A stretch of DNA of 37,988 bases, taken from NCBI GenBank assembly GCA_022511225.1, contig JAFLRZ010000008.1, positions 1 to 37,988 of the forward strand, given 5' to 3'. The stretch's first letter is position 1; each line of letters opens with the position of its first letter. The notes beneath the pieces were generated by a model, which saw only the letters and a list, made by a program, of their open reading frames with translations, was not told the DNA's origin and did no database searches. A program made the position numbers and the translations under genes. Below are positions 1 to 31,130 of this stretch, one piece after another. Source of the DNA: Eubacterium sp. GTDB taxonomy: Bacteria > Bacillota > Clostridia > Oscillospirales > Acutalibacteraceae.

Positions 1-314
1 GCTCTGAGCAGGGCGGCACAAGACCTGTTCTTATCATTTCAAACGATATTGGCAATAGGTACAGCCCGACGGTGATCGTGGCAGCGATTACGAGCCGAGT
101 ACACACAAAGGCAAAGCTTCCAACGCATACAGTGGTGAGAGATTTTGAGGGACTTGATAAAGAGTCGATCATTTTGGCAGAGCAAATCCGCACGATAGAT
201 AAGCAGCGGTTACACAAATATATTGGTATGCTCCCCGCACCTATAATGGCAAGAGCCGACAACGCCCTTGCCATTAGTATTTCTTTGAGGGGAGGACGAA
301 ATGAAAGAGGTTAA
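1..314 (+). CDS. MazF/PemK-type endoribonuclease toxin, 5' end outside window
   Basis: The reading frame is open from base 3 to a stop at 312-314, so the gene starts before the window; about 103 residues are visible. The translation begins SEQGGTRPVLIISND and continues with IVAAITSR, TVVRDFEGLDKESI and AEQIRTIDKQRL. These are the recognisable beta-barrel motifs of the PemK/MazF family, whose members cleave mRNA at short specific sequences in the cytoplasm. An internal GTG/ATG start near base 72 is rejected because it would delete the RPV(L/V)IIS segment. No antitoxin is visible; if there is one it lies upstream of base 1. The gene overlaps the next small gene by 14 bases and sits just before a serine recombinase, so it is probably element cargo. 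MazF-like genes of this kind without a paired antitoxin are common on clostridial conjugative elements, so toxicity is inferred. Confidence 0.85.
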   Translation, partial: SEQGGTRPVLIISNDIGNRYSPTVIVAAITSRVHTKAKLPTHTVVRDFEGLDKESIILAEQIRTIDKQRLHKYIGMLPAPIMARADNALAISISLRGGRNERG

Positions 315-438
315 GATTGATAAATATATCGCTGCGCTGAAACTCATAGAGATACTTCTTGAAAAAGGAAAGATAAATCAAGCCACATATACAAATATAA
401 TGAAACACTCTAATTCGCACATTTCACAAGCGGCTTGA
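301..438 (+). CDS. 45-residue SHOCT-like small protein
   Basis: ATG at 301 is preceded by GGGGAGG at 289-295 and the frame stops with TGA at 436-438. The start overlaps the last 14 bases of the MazF-like gene, which suggests translational coupling. The protein starts MKEVKIDKYIAALKLIEILL and contains the pattern LLEKGKINQATYTNIMK. This resembles the SHOCT motif (short C-terminal helix-turn-helix segment, L..G.I....Y..IM), a small protein-interaction or oligomerisation module. No membrane segment or cysteine is present. It lies 39 bases before the recombinase start, so it is probably co-transcribed with it. The function is unknown; a role as accessory protein of the toxin or the recombinase is a guess. 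Confidence 0.6.
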   Translation: MKEVKIDKYIAALKLIEILLEKGKINQATYTNIMKHSNSHISQAA

Positions 439-477
439 TAAGCGATACAATATTCTCAAACCAAAGGAGGTATGCTT

Positions 478-2304
478 ATGAATACAGCAGCTAACGAATA
501 CAATTACAGATTTAAGCTCACAGATTACGCTCTGTTTGATAGAAACCGAGCAAGGAAAGTAGCAATTTATGGTCGAGTTTCTACGGAACATGAGGCTCAA
601 TTATCTGCATTGGAAAATCAATTACAATGGTATGACGATCAAGTGAGGTATCACCCGAATTGGTCAGTTTGTGACCGCTATATTGACGAGGGCATTACTG
701 GAACACAGGCGAAAAAACGCCCTGCCTTTTTGAGAATGATTGATGATGCCAAGCACGGTAAGTTTGATTTGATTGTTACCAGAGAGGTTTGTCGGTTTGC
801 TCGAAATGTTGTAGATACGCTTGTGGTGACAAGAGAGTTAAAGGGCATAGGGGTCGAGGTTTACTTTATAGATGATAACATTTGGACAATGGATGGCGAT
901 GGTGAACTGCGTTTATCCCTTATGGCAACATTGGCACAGGAGGAAAGCCGAAAAACCTCTGAGCGTGTTAAGGCAGGACAGAAAATCAGCCGTGATAATG
1001 GTGTCCTCTATGGAAATGGGAATATTTTAGGATATGACCGTGTTGGGGATACCTATATTATCAATGAAGAACAAGCGGAAACGGTCAGAATGATCTATGA
1101 TCTGTATCTGCAAGGCTATGGCTCAATGAAAATCGTAAAGATACTCACCGAGCGAAAAAGGAAAACAGCCTCTGGCATTGTGAAATGGAGCGTTTCTAAT
1201 ATTATGCGAACTATCAGAAATGCCACATACACGGGAACAAAGTGTTACAATAAATCACGGAGCAATAATTTTCTGGAGCAGAAGCGTATCAACAATCTGG
1301 ATATGTCCACCTATGAATATGTTGAGGGGGATTTCCCCGCTATTGTTTCCCAAGAGGTATGGGACAAGGCTCAGAAGATAAGAGAAAGCAGAATGAAACC
1401 GTCTTTGGTATCATCTGCAAAAACAACCCACAGCAAACGGGACTCTAAAGATATATGGGTAAATAAGTTGCGCTGCTCTTGCGGATCTTCATACCGTAAA
1501 AACAAATGGCACACTAAGAAAGACGGAGGTATTTCTTATGGATACCAGTGCTATAATCAACTCAATAATGGTAACAAGAAAAAGAGAGAGGAACTCGGTT
1601 TAGACACGGATGGTTATTGTGACAGCAGAATGATAACCGACTGGAAACTCGATTTTATGGCAAAAGCGTTATTAGAGCATTTATGGACGGAAAGAAAAGA
1701 GTCTGTTCTTATTGCAATCGACCTCATAAAGAGGTATTATAGAGATGAAAGAACAACCGAGGGCAAATCAGATGTTGTTGCTTTACAAGCAAAACTGGAA
1801 AAAGCGAATAGCCGCCTGCAAAATCTTATCGCTATGAGAGCTGACGGTGAGATTACAAAAGATGAGTATCAGACGATGCGTTCCTCTATTGACACAGAGA
1901 TACAGGAATTGCAAAAGTCTTTAGAGGAAACACCGATAGAAGAAACTGCAACGAGAGGTTTGGATTTAGACGGTATTATATCGACATTGAATACACTTGT
2001 TGACTTTAGTGGCAGCAAAATAAGTCACGAGGTTATAAATCAATTTGTGTATCTGGTAACACCGACCTCTGATACAACTTTTAACTGGTATATCAATTTG
2101 AATGGCACGGGCGATGTTCGAGCAACCTTTACAGCAGAGGGCAGAAAGAAGAACTGCGTAATTAAATTAGAGGAAATCGAAAGGATTTCCTCGTTACATA
2201 GGAAAGAGAATGAGGATAACGCTCATTTCATAAAAAACCCCCTCATATTTACCTTTCTGCACAGGCTGCAATTGCTGACAAGAAGTAAGAGTATAAAACA
2301 ATAA
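478..2304 (+). CDS. Large serine recombinase (TndX/TnpX-like site-specific integrase)
   Basis: This 608-residue protein catalyses integration or excision of a mobile element by serine recombination. The N-terminal resolvase domain (about 25-170) carries YGRVSTE with the nucleophile at about Ser35, and the RFARN segment supplying catalytic arginine. It is followed by a recombinase domain (about 185-310, GYDR ... NIMRTIRNATYTGTK), a zinc-ribbon with C-x-C at LRCSCGSSYRK and later cysteines, and a leucine-rich coiled coil (about 430-480) containing EITKDEYQTMRSSI, as in other large serine integrases. AAAGGAGG at 463-470 lies only one base before the ATG at 472 but seven before the ATG at 478, so 478 is chosen. 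The gene is intact in length. It reads towards the presumed element end, and a terminator follows immediately. Its attachment sites cannot be placed because only one end of the element is in the window. Confidence 0.93.
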   Translation: MNTAANEYNYRFKLTDYALFDRNRARKVAIYGRVSTEHEAQLSALENQLQWYDDQVRYHPNWSVCDRYIDEGITGTQAKKRPAFLRMIDDAKHGKFDLIVTREVCRFARNVVDTLVVTRELKGIGVEVYFIDDNIWTMDGDGELRLSLMATLAQEESRKTSERVKAGQKISRDNGVLYGNGNILGYDRVGDTYIINEEQAETVRMIYDLYLQGYGSMKIVKILTERKRKTASGIVKWSVSNIMRTIRNATYTGTKCYNKSRSNNFLEQKRINNLDMSTYEYVEGDFPAIVSQEVWDKAQKIRESRMKPSLVSSAKTTHSKRDSKDIWVNKLRCSCGSSYRKNKWHTKKDGGISYGYQCYNQLNNGNKKKREELGLDTDGYCDSRMITDWKLDFMAKALLEHLWTERKESVLIAIDLIKRYYRDERTTEGKSDVVALQAKLEKANSRLQNLIAMRADGEITKDEYQTMRSSIDTEIQELQKSLEETPIEETATRGLDLDGIISTLNTLVDFSGSKISHEVINQFVYLVTPTSDTTFNWYINLNGTGDVRATFTAEGRKKNCVIKLEEIERISSLHRKENEDNAHFIKNPLIFTFLHRLQLLTRSKSIKQ

Positions 2305-2305
2305 T

Positions 2306-2349
2306 AAAAACCCCTGTACGAGCAGTAAATAGCTTGTACAGGGGTTTTT
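2306..2349 (+). terminator. Intrinsic terminator of the recombinase gene
   Basis: The arms AAAAACCCCTGTAC (2306-2319) and GTACAGGGGTTTTT (2336-2349) are perfect complements around a 16-base loop, ending in a T run. It starts two bases after the recombinase stop codon. Confidence 0.9.
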
Positions 2350-2370
2350 AATTTGGTATATAAAAAGATT

Positions 2371-2407
2371 AAGGCGAGAAATGAAATCGTTTCACTTCTC
2401 GCCTTTT
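2371..2407. terminator. Bidirectional hairpin terminator
   Basis: AAGGCGAGAA (2371-2380) pairs with TTCTCGCCTT (2396-2405). After one mismatch the stem continues with TGAAA/TTTCA. T-rich DNA follows on the plus strand and AATCTTTTT on the minus strand. It probably ends the minus-strand transglutaminase transcript, about 90 bases past its stop. The rest of the gap 2408-2495 shows no other feature. Confidence 0.75.
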
Positions 2408-2495
2408 ACTCATTTTCGGTCAGACTTTTCAAGGTTTATCCTTTCCCAACCATTAACTCGTTTTGCATCTGCTTTATCTACTTATTTGAATATAC

Positions 2496-4115
2496 TTATT
2501 TAGTTGTAACGTCTTTAACTGTGCTCCAGCTTCCGTAAACGTATGTGCCGTTAACTTTCTTGAAAGCTCTTACTCTTACGTAGTACTTCTTCTTTGCAGC
2601 TTTGTTTGTAATCTTCTTGCTTGTTGCGTCTGCGGTTGCATTAACTGTGGTTGCATCCTTGAAGTTGCTGTTTGCTGCATACTGAATCTGATAACCGGTT
2701 GCACCTGTTACCTTGTTCCACTCAACTGTAAATGCCTTTGAAGCTGCGATGAGTGCCTTAATAGTAACCTTCTTTGGCATTGCAGGAGTAGTAACGTTCT
2801 TTGCTGTGCTCCAATCACCGTAAGTGATAACGCCGTTAACCTTCTTGTAAGCTCTTACTCTTACGTAGTATTTATTGTCATAACCTCTGCCTGTAACAGT
2901 CTTGGTAACTGTGTCTGCAGAAGCGATTGTTACTGTAGCAGCATTTGCGAAATTGCTCTGTGTTGCATACTGAAGCTGATAGCCTGTTGCGCCTGTTACC
3001 TTAACCCACTTTGCTGTGAAGCCGTCTGCGATAGCTGTTAATGTAGGTGCCTTTGCTGTTGCAACTGTAACCTTAGCCTCTACGTTTGAGCAAGGTGTGC
3101 TTGTAGCCTTTGTTTTTGCTACAGATGCGTGGCACTTATCGGTCATAACATACTTGTTGTTGAAAGCAGCTGTTTTGAATTTAGCTTCTCTTACGTGATT
3201 TGTGAAATGAGCAGGGCAAACAAGGAAGTAGAAATAATTGTAGCCCTCGTCATAATAATCGTCATCCCATGTTACGTCAACATTGTAATATTTGCCGTCG
3301 ATTTCAACGATATTCCAAGAATGATCTGTGCTTGTAACTATTTTATTGTCAATGCCTACTTCTTCGAGCATTCTGTAAAGCAGAGTTGAATAACCCTGGC
3401 AAACAGCCTCGTTTTTGATGATAGCAGCGTATGCTGTGAACTTAGTTTTGTCAGCTGAAGTTGAATGATCATAGTCGCAAACTTTGCAGATATAGTCATA
3501 AATCTTCTTGATTTTTGCATAATCGCTGAGATTGTCAAGATTCATAGCATCGAGTGCCTTGTCTACAGCCTCTGTAACCTTCTTCTCCTGATCTGCGGTT
3601 GTGTAATAGTCAACCTTAAAGTTGAAGGTGTAATCAATCTTGCCGTCGTCATCATATTCTGCAGAACCTGTGTAGCTGTATCCTTCGTACTGCCAAGCAA
3701 GGTAATCGCCGGCTGTAGGTGTATCAGCAAGATCCTTGCTGATTGCAAGATCAAATATTTCGTCAACGAGATCTGCGTAATCATCTCTTGCGCTCTTGAT
3801 ATCGATTGTGAACTTTGTCTTGCGGTTAATCATATTATTTCTGACTTTAATAGCAGCATCTTTCTTTGCCTGTGCTTCTGCGTTAGTTGCATATCTTACA
3901 CCGTTTGTAAAAGAACCGCTGATTTGAGTCGAATTTGTTTTTGTGTTTGCTGTTTCGTCATAAAGTGGATTTGTGCAGTTTTCATTAAAGTAGATAGGGT
4001 CCTGCTCTGTGTTTTCAAATGCAAAAGCAATTGTTTCTGTGGAGCAGAGTGCCATAACGAGAACTAAAATCATAGCGAAGATTTTTTTAGAAAAATCAAA
4101 TAATGTTGTCTTCAA
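2496..4115 (-). CDS. Secreted transglutaminase-like protein with two Fn3-type repeats
   Basis: Start: on the minus strand AGGAG (4125-4129) overlaps a GTG at 4124 but lies 8-9 bases before TTG at 4115-4113, so TTG is preferred (539 residues). The N-terminus MKTTLFDFSKKIFAMILVLV is a clear signal peptide, ending near AFA. Residues about 195-305 form a transglutaminase/protease-like fold with Cys in NEAVCQGYS (about 239), His in TDHSWNIV (about 265) and Asp in YNVDVTWDD (about 280), so the catalytic triad is present. Two roughly 90-residue repeats follow (about 355-443 and 447-537), each with GATGYQ.QYA and KYYVRVRA.KKVNG, typical of fibronectin type III modules in clostridial exported proteins. 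No LPXTG or S-layer domain is seen at the C-terminus. Expression is likely controlled by the tandem c-di-GMP riboswitches in its leader. A peptide- or surface-protein cross-linking or cleaving role is inferred; no substrate can be named. Confidence 0.9.
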   Translation of the reverse strand: MKTTLFDFSKKIFAMILVLVMALCSTETIAFAFENTEQDPIYFNENCTNPLYDETANTKTNSTQISGSFTNGVRYATNAEAQAKKDAAIKVRNNMINRKTKFTIDIKSARDDYADLVDEIFDLAISKDLADTPTAGDYLAWQYEGYSYTGSAEYDDDGKIDYTFNFKVDYYTTADQEKKVTEAVDKALDAMNLDNLSDYAKIKKIYDYICKVCDYDHSTSADKTKFTAYAAIIKNEAVCQGYSTLLYRMLEEVGIDNKIVTSTDHSWNIVEIDGKYYNVDVTWDDDYYDEGYNYFYFLVCPAHFTNHVREAKFKTAAFNNKYVMTDKCHASVAKTKATSTPCSNVEAKVTVATAKAPTLTAIADGFTAKWVKVTGATGYQLQYATQSNFANAATVTIASADTVTKTVTGRGYDNKYYVRVRAYKKVNGVITYGDWSTAKNVTTPAMPKKVTIKALIAASKAFTVEWNKVTGATGYQIQYAANSNFKDATTVNATADATSKKITNKAAKKKYYVRVRAFKKVNGTYVYGSWSTVKDVTTK

Positions 4116-4200
4116 TAGAATCACTCCTGTTTGATTATTTTACAAGAACGCCAATCTATTGTTTAACAGTTTTTAGCTTTTCAGACTTACGGACATCTTA

Positions 4201-4282
4201 AACGGCAACTGGCTGTCATATCCTTTCGGACTTAGACCCTTTAGCTTTGCGTCACCGACTTTCATCGGTTTTGCTATTGGTG
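4201..4282 (-). promoter_or_regulatory. Cyclic-di-GMP-I riboswitch (GEMM-I), gene-proximal copy
   Basis: The minus strand reads AATAGCAAAACCGATGAAAG, then GACGCAAAGCTAAAGGGTCT, then ATGACAGCCAGTTGCC. This matches the GEMM-I aptamer: the GACGCAAAGC element, the GGNCTAA core and the ATGACAGCC(A/G)GNTTGCC 3' side. P2 is formed by CCGAT/GTCGG. It ends about 85 bases before the TTG start of the transglutaminase-like gene. No terminator lies between it and the start codon, so it may act on translation, but I could not identify an anti-ribosome-site strand. Confidence 0.92.
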
Positions 4283-4339
4283 TTCTCTCAAGTTAATTGG
4301 TTATTTTTTAATGTTTTTTTATTATTTTAAGATTTTAGA

Positions 4340-4396
4340 GAAAATAAAAAACAGTCTATCCCCCTTTCACTCTAAATTCAAAGGGTCTAAACTGTT
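4340..4396 (-). terminator. Terminator between tandem riboswitches (expression platform of the first)
   Basis: On the minus strand the left arm (4396 to 4380, AACAGTTTAGACCCTTT) pairs with the right arm (4367 to 4350, AAAGGGGGATAGACTGTT), followed by TTTTTATTTT. The left arm contains TTAGACCCTTT, the exact complement of AAAGGGTCTAA in the aptamer core just upstream (4479 to 4469). Alternative pairing of the aptamer core with this arm would destroy the terminator. Folding of the aptamer on ligand would free the arm and let the terminator form, predicting an OFF switch. Confidence 0.75.
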
Positions 4397-4438
4397 GCCT
4401 AACGCCGTATCTACGGCACTGATATCGAAAAATATATA

Positions 4439-4522
4439 ATGGCAACTGGCTGTCATATCCTTTTGGACTTAGACCCTTTAGCTTTGCGCCGCCGATTTTC
4501 ATCGGGTTTGCTATTAACAAAT
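4439..4522 (-). promoter_or_regulatory. Cyclic-di-GMP-I riboswitch (GEMM-I), promoter-proximal copy
   Basis: The minus strand reads AATAGCAAACCCGATGAAAA, then GGCGCAAAGCTAAAGGGTCT, then ATGACAGCCAGTTGCC, nearly identical in the core to the downstream copy 160 bases away. It begins about ten bases after the predicted transcription start. The minus-strand terminator at 4396-4340 follows it directly. Confidence 0.92.
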
Positions 4523-4538
4523 ATTTTCTTTCATCTGC

Positions 4539-4567
4539 ATTGTAGCACATAAAGTAAATCAATGCAA
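4539..4567 (-). promoter_or_regulatory. Sigma-A promoter for the riboswitch-transglutaminase transcript
   Basis: On the minus strand TTGCAT (4567-4562) and TACAAT (4544-4539) are 17 bases apart. Initiation near 4532 would place the first aptamer at the very 5' end of the RNA. Confidence 0.8.
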
Positions 4568-4629: not shown

Positions 4630-4657
4630 CATTTTTGCTATCACATTTTTGCTATCA
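4630..4657. repeat. Perfect 14-bp tandem direct repeat
   Basis: CATTTTTGCTATCA occurs twice without a gap (4630-4643 and 4644-4657), upstream of the response-regulator promoter. It could be a protein-binding site or a small duplication. Confidence 0.6.
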
Positions 4658-4670
4658 TATATTCCGTGTA

Positions 4671-4684
4671 TTACAATTTTGTAA
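4671..4684. promoter_or_regulatory. Candidate response-regulator box upstream of the regulator gene
   Basis: TTACA-ATTT-TGTAA is an inverted repeat with a four-base centre. It matches the T-N-ACA-N4-TGTAA pattern that I recall for BceR-like regulators. A TATAAT at 4698-4703 follows with 13 bases between, so the box would overlap the -35 region. Similar boxes lie at 6426-6439 and 9274-9287. Confidence 0.5.
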
Positions 4685-4730
4685 TGGAAAGGATACTTAT
4701 AATGTGATAAAATACAATCGGGGTGGTATA

Positions 4731-5411
4731 ATGAACATTTTTCTGTTAGAAGACGATGAAGCAATCGGCATCGGTCTTACGTATTCCCTTGAAAATGAGG
4801 GGTATAACGTTACCCTTGCTAAAAACGTTTCTGAAGCAGTTGATATAATTAACAATAACAGTTTTTCTCTTTATATTCTTGATCTTACTTTGCCTGACGG
4901 AAGCGGGTATGACGCCTGCAAATTAATTAAGTCAAAGGGCGATCTGCCTGTAATATTTCTTACGGCATATGATGACGAGGTCAACGTTGTTATGGGCTTT
5001 GAGCTTGGAGCGGATGATTATATCACAAAGCCTTTCAGAGTCAAGGAGCTTATGGTAAGAATAAAAAGTGTGATGCGCAGATACAGTAAAGAGCTTTCCG
5101 ACGGAATAATCAAAATCAAAAATCTTACTGTAAATACCAATGAAGCAAAGGTCTATAAGAACAATAACGAAATTGTTTTGACTGCTATGGAGTATAAGCT
5201 GCTTCTTATTATGCTCAATAATCGCGGCAAGGTGCTCTCTCGCAACCAGCTTCTTGAAAACATATGGGATATTGACGGCGACTTTGTTGAGGATAATACC
5301 TTGACCGTTTATATAAAAAGACTTAGAGATAAAATTGAGGAGGACCCCGCACAGCCTGTTTACATCAAAACAGTACGTGGACTTGGGTATGTGATTGAAA
5401 ATGATAAATAA
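4731..5411 (+). CDS. OmpR/PhoB-family response regulator
   Basis: The protein has 226 residues. Its receiver domain (about 1-115) has the acidic pocket LLEDDE, the phosphoacceptor Asp51 in YILDLTLPDGSG, a Thr in FLTAYDD and the invariant Lys in DYITKPF. A winged-helix DNA-binding domain follows (about 128-224, with LTAMEYKLLLIMLNN, RDKIEEDP and KTVRGLGYVIE). ATG at 4731 follows GGGGTGG (4718-4724). An in-frame upstream extension from 4635 is rejected because it precedes the standard MNIFLLEDDE start. The 3' end overlaps the kinase gene by 11 bases. With the kinase and the ABC genes downstream it resembles BceRS/VncRS-type antimicrobial-peptide sensing modules. Target boxes are proposed at 4671, 6426 and 9274. 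Confidence 0.93.
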   Translation: MNIFLLEDDEAIGIGLTYSLENEGYNVTLAKNVSEAVDIINNNSFSLYILDLTLPDGSGYDACKLIKSKGDLPVIFLTAYDDEVNVVMGFELGADDYITKPFRVKELMVRIKSVMRRYSKELSDGIIKIKNLTVNTNEAKVYKNNNEIVLTAMEYKLLLIMLNNRGKVLSRNQLLENIWDIDGDFVEDNTLTVYIKRLRDKIEEDPAQPVYIKTVRGLGYVIENDK

Positions 5412-6393
5412 GGATAATAAAGGTATAATTGCTTTCGGTGTTATTATATCTGCTTTGCTATCGGCACTCTGTATGTTTATTGAGCCGATATGTGCAGCCG
5501 TTTGCTTGGTACTCGGTCTGACTGTCACGGGTGTTTTTGTTTATTTTACCAAAAAAAGATACGATAAGCTGAATGAGCTTAACAATTATCTCTCTCTTGT
5601 GTGCGCAGGCAATTTTGACCTCGATATTGCCGACAATACCGAGGGTGAGCTTTCAATACTGAAAAATAATCTTTACAAGGTAATAGTGCTTTTACGTTCG
5701 CAAAATGAGCTTTTGGAAAAGGACAAAATCTACCTTGCGGATTCTCTTGCGGACATCTCGCATCAGCTTAAAACTCCATTAACTTCAATGATGGTGATGA
5801 CGGAACTGCTTAGCAAAGAGGAGAACGACGAGAAAAAATCGGAATTTATATCTATTATTGAAAATCAGCTTGATAAAATGAAATGGCTGATTACAAATCT
5901 GCTTAAGCTTTCAAAGCTTGATGCAGGTACTGTTGATTTTAAGTATGAGGATTTTTCTATCAAAAATACTTTGGAGCAGAGCATTAAGCCGTTTCTTGTA
6001 ACTCTTGACTTAAAAGAAATTTCGTTTGACAATAACGCAGAGGACTTTACCGTAAACGGTGACAGTAAGTGGACAACGGAAGCATTTGAGAATATCATCA
6101 AAAACTGCATTGAGCATACAAACAAGGGTGGAGAACTGACAATTTCAACTGAAATTACAAATTTATATAATTCAGTAATTATCAGAGATAACGGATGCGG
6201 TATAGCGAAGGAGGATTTACCGCACATTTTTGAACGCTTCTATCACGGCAAGAATTCGTCAAGCGACAGTGTGGGTATCGGTCTTGCACTTGCAAAGACA
6301 GTATTTGAAAAAGAAAACGGAAAAATCACTGTTACAAGTGAAATCGCAAAAGGCTCTGAATTTGAAATAAGATTTTATAAAACAATCGTTTAG
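5401..6393 (+). CDS. Sensor histidine kinase partner of the response regulator
   Basis: The protein has 330 residues from ATG 5401; a TTG at 5395 is the alternative. Two hydrophobic segments (about 8-25 and 28-50) with almost no extracellular loop form an intramembrane-sensing type N-terminus. This is followed by a short linker, a dimerisation domain with DISHQLKTPLTS (His at about 121), and an ATPase domain with the N box ENIIKNCIEHTNKGG, G1 DNGCGIAKEDLPHIFERFY and G2 VGIGLALAK. The lack of a sensor domain is typical of kinases that receive their signal from a neighbouring FtsX-type ABC transporter, which fits the genes downstream. It is translationally coupled to the regulator by overlap. 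Confidence 0.92.
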   Translation: MINKDNKGIIAFGVIISALLSALCMFIEPICAAVCLVLGLTVTGVFVYFTKKRYDKLNELNNYLSLVCAGNFDLDIADNTEGELSILKNNLYKVIVLLRSQNELLEKDKIYLADSLADISHQLKTPLTSMMVMTELLSKEENDEKKSEFISIIENQLDKMKWLITNLLKLSKLDAGTVDFKYEDFSIKNTLEQSIKPFLVTLDLKEISFDNNAEDFTVNGDSKWTTEAFENIIKNCIEHTNKGGELTISTEITNLYNSVIIRDNGCGIAKEDLPHIFERFYHGKNSSSDSVGIGLALAKTVFEKENGKITVTSEIAKGSEFEIRFYKTIV

Positions 6394-6425
6394 TATTTAT
6401 CCTTGACTGTCTTGTTTCTTCAATG

Positions 6426-6439
6426 TGACAAAATTGTCA
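6426..6439. promoter_or_regulatory. Candidate response-regulator box upstream of the first permease
   Basis: TGACA-AAAT-TGTCA is a perfect inverted repeat in its arms. The surrounding AATGTGACAAAA and the following AGTCAC recur in the same order upstream of the ATPase gene (9271-9299). It lies 32 bases before the promoter -35. Confidence 0.5.
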
Positions 6440-6471
6440 TTTTTAAGTCACCTGAATGTAAGATTGACAAA

Positions 6472-6500
6472 TTACAATAATATTGTACCTTAGGTATAAT
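6472..6500 (+). promoter_or_regulatory. Promoter of the first permease gene
   Basis: TTACAA (6472-6477) and TATAAT (6495-6500) are 17 bases apart, with start expected near 6507 and ATG at 6537. Confidence 0.65.
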
Positions 6501-6536
6501 ATAATCAATTTTGTTGAATTTTAAGGAGGCAGGAAT

Positions 6537-9257
6537 ATGAATATTATTAAGAGCTTGACAATTCGTCACCTGAAAGTAAACAGGAGCAGAACGGTTATTA
6601 CTGCTCTGGGCATTTTCATTTCTGTCTTTATGATAACTGCCGTGTTCGTTGGTGTGGCATCATATCTTAGCTTTTCTGCTGACGTTGCAATACATAACGG
6701 TGGTCAATGGCATGTAATATTCGGAGGTATAAAAGGCATATCTGAAGAACAGATTAAAATGCTGAAAGCTGATGACAGAATTGAAAGAGTAGGCTGTCTG
6801 GTTAATTATGATAATAAAACAGACAGCTTTAAGATTAACGGCGCAAAAAGCGACAGACTCGGCACAGGCACGTTCTTTGCAGGTGATGAAAACTGTATCA
6901 GACAGATGATTACAGGCAATCTTGAGGGCAGTATTCCTAAAAATGACAAAGAAATCATTGTTAACAGAGAGATTATTGAGAAAAATGATTTAGACTGGAA
7001 AATAGGTGATACGGTTACTCTTTCTGTAGGTGCAAGAGCGCCGAAATTAGTTGACGGTTACGTTGTATTTATTATTTATTATCACAATGAGTATCATACA
7101 GACGAGGTTTTTATACCTGCAGGTGAAAAAGAATTCAAAATTGTCGGCATACTTGACAAAAATCCGCCGACTTATACTAGTGGCTCAATAATAAGAGGAA
7201 TGGGTGAAAATGACAAAATAAGCACTGCATATATTGAGCTTAAAAATGTCACCCCTGCCGCATACCATACAATTAATGATATTGCAAAATCAATCGGCAT
7301 TAAAGAGGATAAGCTTTATGAATACGTTGGCGTAAACGAAGAATTTTTAGCTTCTCACTTTGCTTTTTCAGGTGATGACGACCTATCAAAAATTTTCTCT
7401 GCCGCTGTAATTGTCCTTATAATCATAATGGCAGCATCGGTTGTGCTGATATATAATGCGTTCGGTATGTCCCTTGCCGAACGGACACGCTATCTCGGTA
7501 TGCTCTCATCAGTAGGTGCAACGAGAAAGCAAAAGAAAGCATCAGTATATTTTGAGGGTATTATACTCGGTATGATCACTGTTCCGGCAGGCATCGGTGC
7601 AGGTATACTCGGAGTCTTTATTATTCTTAAAGCCCTCGGCGAAAAAATAGTCAAGACAAATATGATAGTTAATGCGGGCGACCTTAAAATGCAAACGGTT
7701 GTACCGATTTGGTCAATAATCTGCATAGTCGTTATCAGTGCTGTAACTATTTTTATTTCTTCCGTAATACCTGCCAAAAGGGCATCTGCAATCACACCTA
7801 TTGACGCACTCAGGCAAAACAGTGAATTAAAGCTCAAATCAAAAAGACTTAAATCTTCATTCTTAGTTAGAAAAATATTCGGCTTTGAGGGTGAGCTTGC
7901 AAATAAAAATCTGAAACGAAATGCAAGAAAGGCAAGTATTATTACTGTGTCAATAGCCCTTTCAGCTACTCTCTTTTTAAGTGTAAACTATTTTTGTGAA
8001 ATATTTGTGCGTTCAAATGATTATTCTGCTGAGACTCCATATCAGATAGAGTTCGATTTTACTTCAAACAGCTACAAAACATATGAAAAAATGAAAAATT
8101 CCTTAAAGGAAATACCGGGTGTTGATAAAGTTTATTGCTCAGCAAATGAAATATATTTGTATAGTGAAACGGCCGCTAATCCAAAAAAGGGAAATGATTA
8201 TACAGGAATAAATCAGGATTTGAGAAAGCCTGAAAATCTAACAAGCACATATAAAAATCTTTGGGATGAAGTATTGCTTACTGTCCATTTTGTTGAAGAT
8301 GATGATTTTAATGCACTTTGCGAAAAAAACGGTATCGACTATACAAAGTATTATGATGAAAATGCCACATTTGAATCTGATATTAAATGTGTTGTTATGA
8401 ATAATATCAGTCACAGGAATCAGGGTAGTAAGGTGTTTACTGATAACTTCATCGGTGAAAAAATCTATAGTGAGTATTATTTTCTTTATCCTGAATGTGA
8501 CGAAGACGATAATATAATCGGATGGAATGATTCCAGGAATGATCCTGATGATACCGATGGCTTTGAACCTACTAAAACGATTATAACTGATTTTGTTGAG
8601 TACGACGACGATAATTATTTATGCCATCTTGATGGCGCAAATACAATAAGCGCTTACGTACCGGTAAGTATGCATAAGACGAATTTTTTATATACTATTG
8701 ACGATGATGGTGGGCTTATTGAGCTTGGTATTGAAACAAGCGACCACGAATATGTTGCAGACCAAATCGGTAGTATGATTGATGAGAACGGTTATGAAGG
8801 TGCAGCAGTTTATGATATACAAAAATATCATGAACACGCTCAAACAACAGTTTTTGTTTTACAGGTATTTGTTTACGGCTTTATAATACTTATAACCCTC
8901 ATAACACTTGCTAATATAGTAAACACCATTTCAACAGGCATTGATTCAAGACGCAGAGAATTTGCTATGTTTAAATCAGTCGGCATAACGCAAAACGGCT
9001 TTAGAAAAATGATGTGCCTTGAAAGCCTTTTCTACGGCTTGCGGGCGCTTATATTTGCAATACCGCTGAGTATTGTTATAAATTATATCCTAAATAAAAA
9101 AGTCGGCTCAAATAAAATCCCATTTGAAATTAATTATATTATGTATCTTGCAGTGATTGCCGCCGTGTTTGCGGTAGTAGGCTTTGCAATGCTTTATTCC
9201 GTGTCAAAGCTGAAAAAAGCGTCTGTAATTGAAACTCTAAAAGAAGATATAAGCTGA
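6537..9257 (+). CDS. ABC transporter permease, duplicated FtsX domains (first of a paralogous pair)
   Basis: This 906-residue inner-membrane protein starts MNIIKSLTIRHLKVNRSRTV after AAGGAGG (6523-6529). The order is: TM1 (about 18-40), an extracellular domain (about 41-280), a first FtsX domain with three TMs (about 285-430, SLAERTRYLGMLSSVGATRKQ), a fifth TM (about 455-475), a large acidic extracellular domain (about 490-775, rich in DDDN and ECDEDD), and a second FtsX domain with three TMs (about 775-895, RRREFAMFKSVGITQNGF). It ends ETLKEDIS, as does the second permease at 10030, showing that they are duplicates. The two probably form a heterodimer driven by the ATPase at 9350. A role in exporting or detecting peptides at the membrane is inferred from the family and the adjacent two-component system. 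It differs from BceB in having two full FtsX units. Confidence 0.85.
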   Translation: MNIIKSLTIRHLKVNRSRTVITALGIFISVFMITAVFVGVASYLSFSADVAIHNGGQWHVIFGGIKGISEEQIKMLKADDRIERVGCLVNYDNKTDSFKINGAKSDRLGTGTFFAGDENCIRQMITGNLEGSIPKNDKEIIVNREIIEKNDLDWKIGDTVTLSVGARAPKLVDGYVVFIIYYHNEYHTDEVFIPAGEKEFKIVGILDKNPPTYTSGSIIRGMGENDKISTAYIELKNVTPAAYHTINDIAKSIGIKEDKLYEYVGVNEEFLASHFAFSGDDDLSKIFSAAVIVLIIIMAASVVLIYNAFGMSLAERTRYLGMLSSVGATRKQKKASVYFEGIILGMITVPAGIGAGILGVFIILKALGEKIVKTNMIVNAGDLKMQTVVPIWSIICIVVISAVTIFISSVIPAKRASAITPIDALRQNSELKLKSKRLKSSFLVRKIFGFEGELANKNLKRNARKASIITVSIALSATLFLSVNYFCEIFVRSNDYSAETPYQIEFDFTSNSYKTYEKMKNSLKEIPGVDKVYCSANEIYLYSETAANPKKGNDYTGINQDLRKPENLTSTYKNLWDEVLLTVHFVEDDDFNALCEKNGIDYTKYYDENATFESDIKCVVMNNISHRNQGSKVFTDNFIGEKIYSEYYFLYPECDEDDNIIGWNDSRNDPDDTDGFEPTKTIITDFVEYDDDNYLCHLDGANTISAYVPVSMHKTNFLYTIDDDGGLIELGIETSDHEYVADQIGSMIDENGYEGAAVYDIQKYHEHAQTTVFVLQVFVYGFIILITLITLANIVNTISTGIDSRRREFAMFKSVGITQNGFRKMMCLESLFYGLRALIFAIPLSIVINYILNKKVGSNKIPFEINYIMYLAVIAAVFAVVGFAMLYSVSKLKKASVIETLKEDIS

Positions 9258-27710: not shown

Positions 27711-28737
27711 ATGATAAGCGAAAGACGGCTTGCGATACTCAATCTTATTATTGAGCATTATCTTCGCACAGGCGAGCCTATGGGCTCAAAAAATCTCTGT
27801 CGGCTTCTTCCTTATTCCGTATCGAGTGCTACCATAAGAAATGAGATGGCATATCTTTCTGAATTAGGCTTTCTTGAGCAAAGGCATACAAGCGGCGGAC
27901 GAGTGCCGAGCAAGGCAAGCTATAGATATTATATAGATAATTTGATGGAAGAGTCTGAGGTATCACCTTATGACGCCCGTAATATAGATGAACAGCTTGC
28001 TGTAAACGCCGGAGATCCCGAAAGACTTCTTTCCGATGCATCAAAGCTTATAAGCAGATATACTCAGTGTGCATCTTTTAGCAGTATACTTGAGGATGAC
28101 CTTGACTGCATTGAGGGTGTCGACCTTATTCCTGCCGGAAACTCGAAGGGTATGCTTGTATTACTCACTGTCGGCAGTAAGATTAAATCTTCTCTTATTA
28201 ACCTTACTTGCAGGCTTGATGATGATTTCAGATTTCTGTTTTACGAGGTAATGCAAAGACTGTTTATCGGCACACCGCTTACAGACGTCAATATGGCACT
28301 GATTCAAAGCTCGGTGCTTATTGCAGACAAAAGAGTATTTGATTTGCTTCCCGTACTGATTTCACTTTGCTCACTTTGCAATGAAGCGTCACATACAACT
28401 CTCAATATTGAGGGCGAAACGAAGCTCCTTTCGCACGAGGAGCTGGGAACAGACGTTTATAAGCTTCTATCGTTTCTTGCAGATAAGGAGCAGATGATAA
28501 AGCTTATCAAAGAGTTTTCAAGGCTGGGCACTAAATCTGCAATGTTTATCGGGGATGAAAATCCTCTGTATGAAATGAAAAACACGTCAACGATTATTTC
28601 TCAGTTTACCTATGGAAACAATCAAAAAGCGTGCCTTGGTATGATAGGCTCGGTAAGAATTGACTACAAAAGGGTTATTCCCATTGTTAAGCATATATTT
28701 AACACAGTAGACAGATTACTCTCAAAGGAGGTAAAAA

Positions 28738-28745
<8 letters not shown>
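27711..28745 (+). CDS. hrcA: Heat-shock repressor HrcA
   Basis: The protein has 344 residues from ATG 27711, after GAGGTG; a GTG at 27702 is a less likely start. The N-terminal winged helix has ERRLAILNLIIEHYLRTGEPMGSKNL, SSATIRNEMAYLSELGFLEQ and HTSGGRVPSKASYRYYID. A GAF-like and dimerisation part follows and ends SVRIDYKRVIPIVKHIFNTVDRLL. HrcA binds CIRCE and needs GroEL for activity. Its last eight bases overlap grpE. Confidence 0.96.

Positions 28746-31130
<2,385 letters not shown>

What the first reader, a model, noticed from the sequence alone, without database searches (positions are those of the whole stretch)
4201..4567. Tandem c-di-GMP-I riboswitches with an alternative-pairing terminator control a secreted transglutaminase-like protein
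Two near-identical GEMM-I aptamers lie in one leader on the minus strand, behind a clear promoter. Between them is an intrinsic terminator whose left arm contains TTAGACCCTTT, the exact complement of AAAGGGTCTAA in the aptamer core. This gives a complete model: free aptamer core pairs with the arm (antitermination), and ligand-bound aptamer releases it (termination, gene OFF at high c-di-GMP). The second aptamer has no terminator and could act on translation, making a two-step switch that responds more sharply. The regulated gene, a signal-peptide transglutaminase-like/Fn3 protein, would be a c-di-GMP-dependent surface factor in a gut-type anaerobe.
Basis: partly seen in the sequence, partly recalled or inferred. 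Interest (0 to 1): 0.75.

Follow-up and report, generated by a model that had tools for sequence, protein, structure and literature searches.

The report
Two-step c-di-GMP switch, surface protein gene
One RNA leader carries two sensors for the same bacterial signal: the first appears to stop transcription and the second appears to control translation of a secreted enzyme-like protein, perhaps in the opposite direction, so the gene might be made only at middle signal levels.

Summary
Two c-di-GMP-I aptamers (Rfam RF01051, 71.4 and 74.8 bits) share one minus-strand leader with a terminator between them. The 11-base complementarity is real (6 of 2000 shuffles reach it); a second, GTTGCC/GGCAAC, extends it. 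Forcing the aptamer core raises the modelled terminator in 8 of 8 related leaders and lowers it in 7 of 7 ON-layout controls: module 1 is probably transcription-OFF.

A helix, P0, encloses it and excludes a hairpin that hides the ribosome site and start codon. P0 covaries: 5 of 11 pairs change on both sides in 6 distinct sequences. Six leaders in four genomes of two genera carry this composite. Folding predicts that a formed aptamer 2 frees the ribosome site in 3 of 5 leaders (two of them near-copies) and does nothing in 2. That is ON, opposite to module 1, not the proposed sharper OFF switch. Nothing was measured.

Tandem c-di-GMP-I riboswitches before transglutaminase-like genes are already in print; this two-level version, perhaps with opposed signs, is a new variant.

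The parts
4539..4567 (-). promoter-like site: TTGCAT, 17 nt, TACAAT (TG one base before the -10 box)
   Evidence: sequence and coordinates; not in the list
4438..4522 (-). aptamer 1, c-di-GMP-I (GEMM-I)
   Evidence: RF01051 71.4 bits
4469..4479 (-). antiterminator segment A (AAAGGGTCTAA), 5' strand of the second aptamer stem
4441..4446 (-). antiterminator segment B (GTTGCC), 3' strand of the aptamer
4380..4399 (-). partner strand of the antiterminator (GGCAAC and TTAGACCCTTT), overlapping the left arm of the terminator
4341..4394 (-). intrinsic terminator hairpin 4394-4352 (modelled -16.3 kcal/mol) with U-rich tail 4351-4341
4201..4285 (-). aptamer 2, c-di-GMP-I (GEMM-I)
   Evidence: RF01051 74.8 bits
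4276..4287 (-). P0 helix, 5' strand GAGAACACCAAT
   Evidence: covarying helix
4144..4155 (-). P0 helix, 3' strand ATTGGCGTTCTT; carries the anti-Shine-Dalgarno UUCUU
4183..4199 (-). small hairpin with a CGUAA-containing loop just 3' of aptamer 2, paired in all 6 distinct sequences
   Evidence: helix 7
4113..4161 (-). alternative hairpin S: CAATAGA/TCTATTG plus GTTCTTG/CAGGAGT; hides the ribosome site and start codon, excludes P0
   Evidence: -11.9 kcal/mol, z -3.12, ends chosen by me after seeing the fold
4124..4128 (-). Shine-Dalgarno AGGAG
2496..4115 (-). regulated gene: 539 aa, TTG start, signal-peptide-like N-terminus (by eye), transglutaminase-like core with Cys/His/Asp motifs (VCQGYS, HSWN, YNVDVTWDD), two Fn3-like repeats
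   Evidence: Transglut_core 4.5e-08; 53% identical to the L035 protein, which has fn3 matches and whose ATG lines up with this TTG; in this protein itself the only Fn3 match is below its cut-off
2371..2405 (-). terminator-like hairpin after the gene; suggests a single-gene transcript

Best explanation
The leader is a two-mechanism tandem c-di-GMP riboswitch. Module 1: with no ligand, two strands of aptamer 1 pair with the left arm of the terminator and transcription goes on; c-di-GMP holds the aptamer closed, the terminator forms, and transcription stops (OFF). Module 2: in transcripts that pass, the anti-Shine-Dalgarno strand behind aptamer 2 pairs either with the ribosome site and start codon (hairpin S, translation off) or with the sequence just 5' of aptamer 2 (helix P0, ribosome site free). 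P0 sits where the aptamer's P1 stem should be, so bound c-di-GMP most likely favours P0 and turns translation ON. With opposed signs the protein would be made mainly at intermediate c-di-GMP, or as a pulse when c-di-GMP rises after the mRNA has been made. Shown by sequence: the aptamers, the terminator, both pairs of mutually exclusive helices, and their conservation. Inferred: ligand binding, both signs, and the combined response; the sign of module 2 is the weakest step.
For: Aptamers. Module 1: forcing the aptamer core raises P(terminator) in 8 of 8 leaders (window .81 to .92, L035 .12 to .98, L032-1 .01 to .64, L032-2 .95 to .98, L034 .26 to .96, L037 .70 to .89, G405 .00 to .85, G827 .01 to .87), while 7 of 7 leaders of ON layout fall (from .82-.99 to .43-.67). 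In each of the 8, the better of the two strands pairs with the arm as few shuffles do (1 to 25 of 500); in the window both strands do (1 and 4 of 500). Module 2: P0 has 98.5% of cells paired and 5 of 11 pairs with a change on both sides in 6 distinct sequences. Hairpin S: window z -3.12, L035 -1.82, L034a -1.84, G827-3 -3.19; weak where I see no gene (G405 -0.12) or a 3-codon frame (G827-2 -0.82). Sign: in the whole leader, forcing core 2 drops ribosome-site sequestration in the window .76 to .25, L034a .91 to .06, L034b .50 to .04; with both cores forced it falls in 4 of 5 (window .41, L035 .36, L034a .06, L034b .04, G827 .96). In the isolated module P0 rises in 4 of 7 and is flat in 3. A c-di-GMP enzyme is present: one protein with receiver, HD-GYP-like and GGDEF domains.
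Against: No ligand, transcript or protein was measured. Forcing the core removes the antiterminator strands by construction, so searches test layout, not ligand response. For the window the module 1 shift is small (.81 to .92). In 7 of 8 leaders the second of the two antiterminator strands is no better than chance (51 to 500 of 500 shuffles as good), and the swap test of cognate against non-cognate strands is weak for segment A (823 of 20000 permutations as good) and empty for B (5197 of 20000). For module 2, L035 (.94 to .95) and G827 (.99 to .97) do not respond to forcing the last aptamer; in L035 forcing aptamer 1 does it instead (.94 to .16); two of the three responders, L034a and L034b, are near-copies; in G405, which has no gene, forcing both cores lowers the unpaired ribosome site from .56 to .28. 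In the isolated window module P0 is already preferred without forcing (.91). The P0 counts come from an alignment fitted to P0, with only 6 distinct sequences. The hairpins were cut by me after seeing the folds.
Confidence: 0.5

Rival explanations
1. Coherent double OFF: aptamer 1 terminates transcription and bound aptamer 2 blocks translation, giving a steeper shut-off. Aptamer 2 would have to disfavour P0 when bound, for example by a local P1 stem that takes the CAAU of the 5' P0 strand.
For: Tandem c-di-GMP-I systems are described as more 'digital' (PMC9481103, passages), and the tested one, Bc3-5, has three units of the same sign (PMC4759541, passages). The L032 leader carries two units in a row that both fold as OFF.
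Against: I see no local P1 conserved as Watson-Crick pairs among these aptamers (by eye). Forcing the core of the last aptamer did not raise sequestration by more than .01 in any of 5 leaders followed by an open frame.
Confidence: 0.25
2. Aptamer 2 binds c-di-GMP but does not switch: P0 or S is fixed, and the second copy is a duplicated remnant or a stabiliser of the mRNA.
For: Sequestration does not respond in L035 and G827. Duplication is common here: two near-identical copies of the whole composite lie side by side in L034.
Against: P0 covaries, and hairpin S is kept with different letters in the window, in L035 and in the L034/G827-3 pair, which a remnant would not need.
Confidence: 0.17
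3. Cross-talk: after read-through, the released terminator arm TTAGACCCTTT pairs with the identical core of aptamer 2 and disables it, so aptamer 1 sets the state of aptamer 2 in the same molecule.
For: The arm is an exact complement of both cores. In L035 forcing aptamer 1 changes the ribosome site.
Against: In L034, L037, G405 and G827 the match of the arm to segment A is not beyond chance (51 to 500 of 500 shuffles as good). This state was not folded on its own here.
Confidence: 0.08

Closest known systems
c-di-GMP-I (GEMM-I) riboswitch, Rfam RF01051
   Same: both aptamers match over the full model (1-87 of 87) far above the gathering score
   Different: the family describes the aptamer only; the P0/S platform is not part of it
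Tandem c-di-GMP-I riboswitches (347 doublets, 12 triplets, PMC9481103, passages read; Bc3-5 of B. thuringiensis, PMC4759541, passages read)
   Same: several c-di-GMP-I units in one leader
   Different: Bc3-5 is transcription-ON with three like units; the review reads the tandems as more 'digital' and gives no platforms for single cases in the passages I saw. Here a transcription-OFF unit is followed by a unit with a translational platform
Two-mechanism ('bi-mechanism') tandems SAM-II/SAM-V (PMC9481103, passages read)
   Same: first unit terminator, second unit controls the ribosome site, same ligand
   Different: there two aptamer classes; the direction of the second unit is not stated in the passages I saw (recalled as OFF). 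Here one class, and the predicted directions are opposed
Bc1 c-di-GMP-I riboswitch (PMC11218506, abstract and passages read)
   Same: 'incoherent' transcription-translation control by c-di-GMP-I
   Different: one aptamer with two terminators, and no response of expression to c-di-GMP was found there; here two aptamers, one for each level
Tandem c-di-GMP-I before transglutaminase-like genes, COG1305, in Bacillota (PMC12452182, Table 2 and passages read, P 1.08E-34)
   Same: same arrangement and same kind of target gene
   Different: the parts that I read (passages and part 1 of 4 of section 22) report the association and give no platform for these leaders

Membership tests
c-di-GMP-I riboswitch (RF01051) | covariance-model score above gathering over the whole aptamer | tested here: met
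   74.8 and 71.4 bits against 35; model positions 1-87
c-di-GMP-I riboswitch (RF01051) | G (not A) at the ligand-contact position before CAAA, favouring c-di-GMP over c-AMP-GMP | tested here: met
   AGCAAA in both aptamers; that this is the position (G20) is recalled, the G/A rule is in PMC9481103
c-di-GMP-I riboswitch (RF01051) | binding of c-di-GMP | not testable with these tools
   needs in-line probing or calorimetry
Two-mechanism tandem riboswitch | two complete units for one ligand in one leader, no gene between | tested here: met
Two-mechanism tandem riboswitch | first unit controls an intrinsic terminator | tested here: met
   sequence and folding in 8 of 8 leaders; no transcription assay
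Two-mechanism tandem riboswitch | second unit controls the ribosome site | tested here: inconclusive
   mutually exclusive P0 and S; a response to the formed aptamer in 3 of 5 leaders, two of them near-copies
Same-direction (pseudo-cooperative) tandem | both units turn expression the same way | tested here: inconclusive
   folding suggests opposed signs in 3 of 5, no change in 2
Transglutaminase-like superfamily (PF01841 / COG1305) | Transglut_core match with Cys, His and Asp motifs | tested here: met
   33.8 bits, cut-off 23; motifs; conserved in L035. COG1305 itself was not searched, and enzyme activity was not tested

The most novel reading that the evidence does not exclude
A natural band-pass riboswitch: two near-identical aptamers for one ligand in one leader, the first stopping transcription at high c-di-GMP and the second allowing translation only when c-di-GMP is bound, so that a secreted protein is made only in a middle range or as a pulse. 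In this 2.2 Mb genome the visible circuit would be close to minimal: one c-di-GMP enzyme carrying both GGDEF and HD-GYP-like domains, no EAL match, and one c-di-GMP-I leader (HD-GYP proteins without GGDEF, other c-di-GMP receptors and class II riboswitches elsewhere in the genome were not searched).
Probability: 0.35. Interest if true: 0.8.

Novelty: new variant of a known kind. Interest (0 to 1): 0.52.

Why it matters
Tandem c-di-GMP-I riboswitches outnumber the tandems of every other class in the survey PMC9481103 (passages) and are explained there as steeper switches. A leader whose two units work at different levels, and perhaps in opposite directions, would show that RNA alone can read a middle concentration of a second messenger. 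The small c-di-GMP inventory found in this genome would make the question easy to frame, and one reporter could answer it. The covarying P0/S pair also gives a concrete, mutable platform for a translational c-di-GMP-I switch.

Tried and rejected
Tried: a search for the missing second half of the G008 leader, which breaks at a contig end; only the two known first-type aptamers came back, so G008 is not counted. Tried: pairing of the 5' leader end with the stretch behind the U tract. It looks good in 4 of 8 leaders (shuffles as good: 4, 19, 32 and 40 of 500) but not in the other 4 (177, 491, 493, 498 of 500), and the letters are A/T-rich, so it is not part of the model. Tried: swapping antiterminator strands between leaders; the strands are too alike to give power.

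Rejected: ON-type control by a terminator using the 3' aptamer strand, as in the other leaders of this genus that I folded; module 1 folds the other way. Rejected as the first guess: a ligand other than c-di-GMP, because the contact base is G. Rejected: the leader as a fixed feature of this protein family; the seven next homologues at E up to 1e-40, in six genomes (32-39% identical), have no aptamer motif by pattern in the fetched DNA, and their genomes have no Rfam match.

Limits: RNA folding has no ligand term; 'forcing the core' only fixes secondary structure. In the controls the second stem was taken from a fold of that stretch and not from the Rfam pairs used; for L039-1 it is not a canonical aptamer stem. 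In the order and family searches I read sequence for only some of the lower-scoring model hits (seven genomes printed, two; in genus g47 G827, G837, G833 and G849); two fetched loci (L159, L164) printed nothing with my pattern and L167 was not read. Composites of other sequence may have been missed. Genome searches over 40 genomes use stricter filters.

Full report
What is there. A minus-strand leader begins behind a promoter-like site (TTGCAT 4567-4562, 17 nt, TACAAT 4544-4539) and ends at a TTG start at 4115. It holds two c-di-GMP-I aptamers, 4438-4522 (71.4 bits) and 4201-4285 (74.8 bits), both over the whole model and 92% identical over 78 nt. They are the only RF01051 matches in the genome. 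The gene codes for 539 aa with a signal-peptide-like start (by eye), a Transglut_core domain (4.5e-08) with VCQGYS, HSWN and YNVDVTWDD motifs, and two repeats that align with fn3 domains of its homologue (in the protein itself the only Fn3 match is below its cut-off). A terminator-like hairpin follows the gene at 2405-2371. In L035, the homologue in genome G025 (53% identical; 58% over the N-terminal half) has the same leader, and its ATG lines up with this TTG, which supports the start codon.

Module 1. The left arm of the terminator between the aptamers (4394-4352) is complementary to two strands of aptamer 1: AAAGGGTCTAA (11 bases; 6 of 2000 shuffles reach 11) and GTTGCC. Both lie in or at the second stem of the aptamer, so the closed aptamer and the antiterminator exclude each other. 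I compared eight leaders of this type: the window, L035, two in L032, one in L034, L037, G405 (L156) and G827 (L176). L034 holds a second, closely similar copy that was not run in this test. Forcing the aptamer core raised the terminator in 8 of 8. As a control, seven leaders from six genomes of the same genus whose terminator overlaps the 3' aptamer strand (ON layout, my classification) fell in 7 of 7. Both results follow partly by construction, since forcing the core takes strands away. In each of the eight, the better of the two strands pairs with the arm as few shuffles do (at most 25 of 500 as good): the window, L035 and L032-1 by segment A; L032-2, L034, L037, G405 and G827 by segment B; only the window passes with both (1 and 4 of 500), and the second strand is no better than chance in the other seven (51 to 500 of 500). 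In G405 the core reads CTACAGGGA and the arm reads TCCCTG, a matching change, though segment A alone is not beyond chance there (51 of 500). The test of cognate against swapped strands is weak (A 823 of 20000; B 5197 of 20000). In the window alone the shift is small.81 to .92. I take OFF at the level of transcription as well supported for the group and likely for the window.

Module 2. Aptamer 2 has no terminator. Its flanks form a long helix, here called P0: GAGAACACCAAT (4287-4276) with ATTGGCGTTCTT (4155-4144), enclosing the aptamer and a small hairpin with a CGUAA-containing loop. A covariance model built from the window and L035 found full-length relatives twice in L034, in G405 and twice in G827. 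In the 7 matches (6 distinct), P0 has 98.5% of cells paired and 5 of its 11 pairs have changes on both sides; the whole structure has 14 such pairs of 35, against 0 to 2 when slid by one to three columns. The alignment was fitted to this structure, which favours it. The strongest single case is the middle unit of G827, where the helix is rebuilt as AAGAA-CCAAA with UUUGG-UUCUU.

The 3' strand of P0 holds an anti-Shine-Dalgarno. When P0 is absent it pairs with the ribosome site and, by a second short helix, around the start codon: window CAATAGA/TCTATTG plus GTTCTTG/CAGGAGT; L035 AAGATT/AATCTT plus TTCTTG/CAAGGA; L034 GGTTG/CAATC plus TTCTTT/AAAGGA; G827-3 GGTTG/CAACC plus TTCTTT/AAAGGA (letters read). 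L034 and G827-3 are nearly the same; the window and L035 differ from them and from each other. Stability against shuffles is z -3.12, -1.82, -1.84 (copy a) and -3.19 in these four. It is not special in G405 (-0.12), where I see no start codon after the ribosome site, nor in the middle unit of G827 (-0.82), which stands before a frame of three codons. The stretches were cut by me after seeing the folds, so these z-scores are on the favourable side.

Direction of module 2. P0 begins one base 5' of the ligand-contact G, where the P1 stem of these aptamers lies (recalled knowledge of the family; PMC4759541 passages describe a P1 strand beginning two bases after the contact C). Hence ligand should favour P0 and free the ribosome site. 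Folding agrees in part. In the isolated module P0 rises in window (.91 to .99), L034a (.75 to .86), G405 (.07 to .86) and G827-3 (.17 to .56) and is flat in L035 (.00), L034b (.90 to .89) and G827-2 (.89 to .90). In the whole leader, forcing the last core lowers sequestration in window (.76 to .25), L034a (.91 to .06) and L034b (.50 to .04) and leaves L035 (.94 to .95) and G827 (.99 to .97) unchanged; L034a and L034b are near-copies, and the frame behind L034a is only 75 codons. Forcing aptamer 1 alone gives window .81, L035 .16, L034a .89, L034b .26, G827 .99; forcing every core gives .41.36.06.04.96. In G405, which has no gene, sequestration by this strand is near zero throughout, and forcing both cores lowers the unpaired ribosome site from .56 to .28. 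I give ON about 55%.

Combined reading. If module 1 is OFF and module 2 is ON, the protein is made at intermediate c-di-GMP, or as a pulse: mRNA made at low c-di-GMP is translated when c-di-GMP rises, while new transcription stops. If module 2 is OFF, the leader is a two-level version of the known steep switch. If module 2 does not respond, only the terminator matters. A fourth possibility is cross-talk, because the terminator arm is complementary to aptamer 2 as well (4242-4232).

Distribution. Of 80 genomes of the genus, 13 have RF01051 matches. By sequence only G000, G025 and G008 of these have the type seen here; G008 breaks at a contig end and is not counted as a full composite. The full composite is seen in the window, three times in G025 (L034 twice, L035), and in another genus in G405 and G827 (the latter with three aptamers; 39 genomes of that genus searched): six leaders, four genomes. 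In the order sample (394 genomes) and the family sample (398 genomes) no hit of this model outside G000, G025, G008 and G405 scores above 71 bits; many lower hits were not read. Other targets of the composite or of module 1 alone look like secreted or surface proteins: LRR_5 proteins (L034 copy b, L176), a signal peptidase I that is SipW-like but under the SipW cut-off (L032), and a CAP-domain protein (L038). The closest homologue of the window gene keeps the leader; the seven next ones in six genomes do not have it.

Context in the genome. One protein with GGDEF was found. It also has a receiver and an HD_5 domain with a HHERYDGKGYPDGL motif, read by me as REC-HD-GYP-GGDEF. No EAL match. HD-GYP proteins without GGDEF and other c-di-GMP receptors were not searched.

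Comparison with what is in print. Tandem c-di-GMP-I leaders are common (347 doublets, 12 triplets; PMC9481103, passages) and are read there as more 'digital' switches; its Table 1 lists bi-mechanism tandems only for SAM riboswitches. PMC12452182 (Table 2 and passages) already reports tandem c-di-GMP-I before COG1305 transglutaminase-like genes in Bacillota as enriched. PMC11218506 (abstract and passages) reports an incoherent transcription-translation effect for the single-aptamer Bc1. Searches listed no paper that I recognised, from listings alone, as a two-mechanism or opposed-sign tandem of c-di-GMP-I; one search listed 25 of 94 papers, and the library holds open-licence papers only. Hence: new variant of a known kind.

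Noticed in passing
G000 C17 (L048), about 28498-28941 (-): The only GGDEF protein found in the genome also has receiver and HD-GYP-like domains, so one protein may both make and break c-di-GMP.
   Followed up: partly
L176 (G827 C57), minus strand, 3379-3525 and 3111-3267: A triple leader: one terminator-type aptamer and two P0-type aptamers; the middle one stands before a ribosome site and a three-codon frame (ATG AAG AGG TAA).
   Followed up: partly
L156 (G405 C4), 1403-1900 (+): A full tandem leader with no start codon seen behind its ribosome site; P0 is kept but the hiding hairpin is no longer special, as if the gene had been lost.
   Followed up: no
L032 (G025 C22), 1230-3099 (-): Two terminator-type units in a row before a SipW-like signal peptidase, followed by a small exported-looking protein with a GTFARYT stretch (TasA-like by eye, no Pfam or NCBIfam hit).
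   Followed up: partly
L036, L040, L042 (G006, G031, G037): A c-di-GMP-I aptamer stands directly before a GGDEF gene in 3 of 3 loci scanned, with a second leader behind it that folds as ON-type: a possible positive feedback on c-di-GMP. The first leaders were not folded.
   Followed up: partly
L041 (G036 C58), 3-932 (-): Two c-di-GMP-I aptamers, each with its own terminator over its 3' strand (only the first was folded, as ON-type), before a VTC-domain gene.
   Followed up: partly
L083, L088, L090 (records titled Bacillota bacterium, Clostridia bacterium and Vallitalea sp.): Two or three c-di-GMP-I-like aptamer motifs about 110 nt apart, the last one directly followed by a purine-rich ribosome site (by pattern); possibly another tandem with a translational last unit.
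   Followed up: no
window 472-2304 (+): A large serine recombinase (Resolvase plus Recombinase domains) lies beside the regulated gene, near the start of the contig.
   Followed up: no
window 4635-9257 (+): A response regulator, a histidine kinase and an FtsX-type permease gene run divergently from the leader; any link with the switch is unknown.
   Followed up: no
window 4522-4529 and 4339-4346 (-): The 5' end of the leader (AGAAAATA) is complementary to the stretch behind the U tract; similar matches in 3 other leaders but not in the remaining 4.
   Followed up: partly
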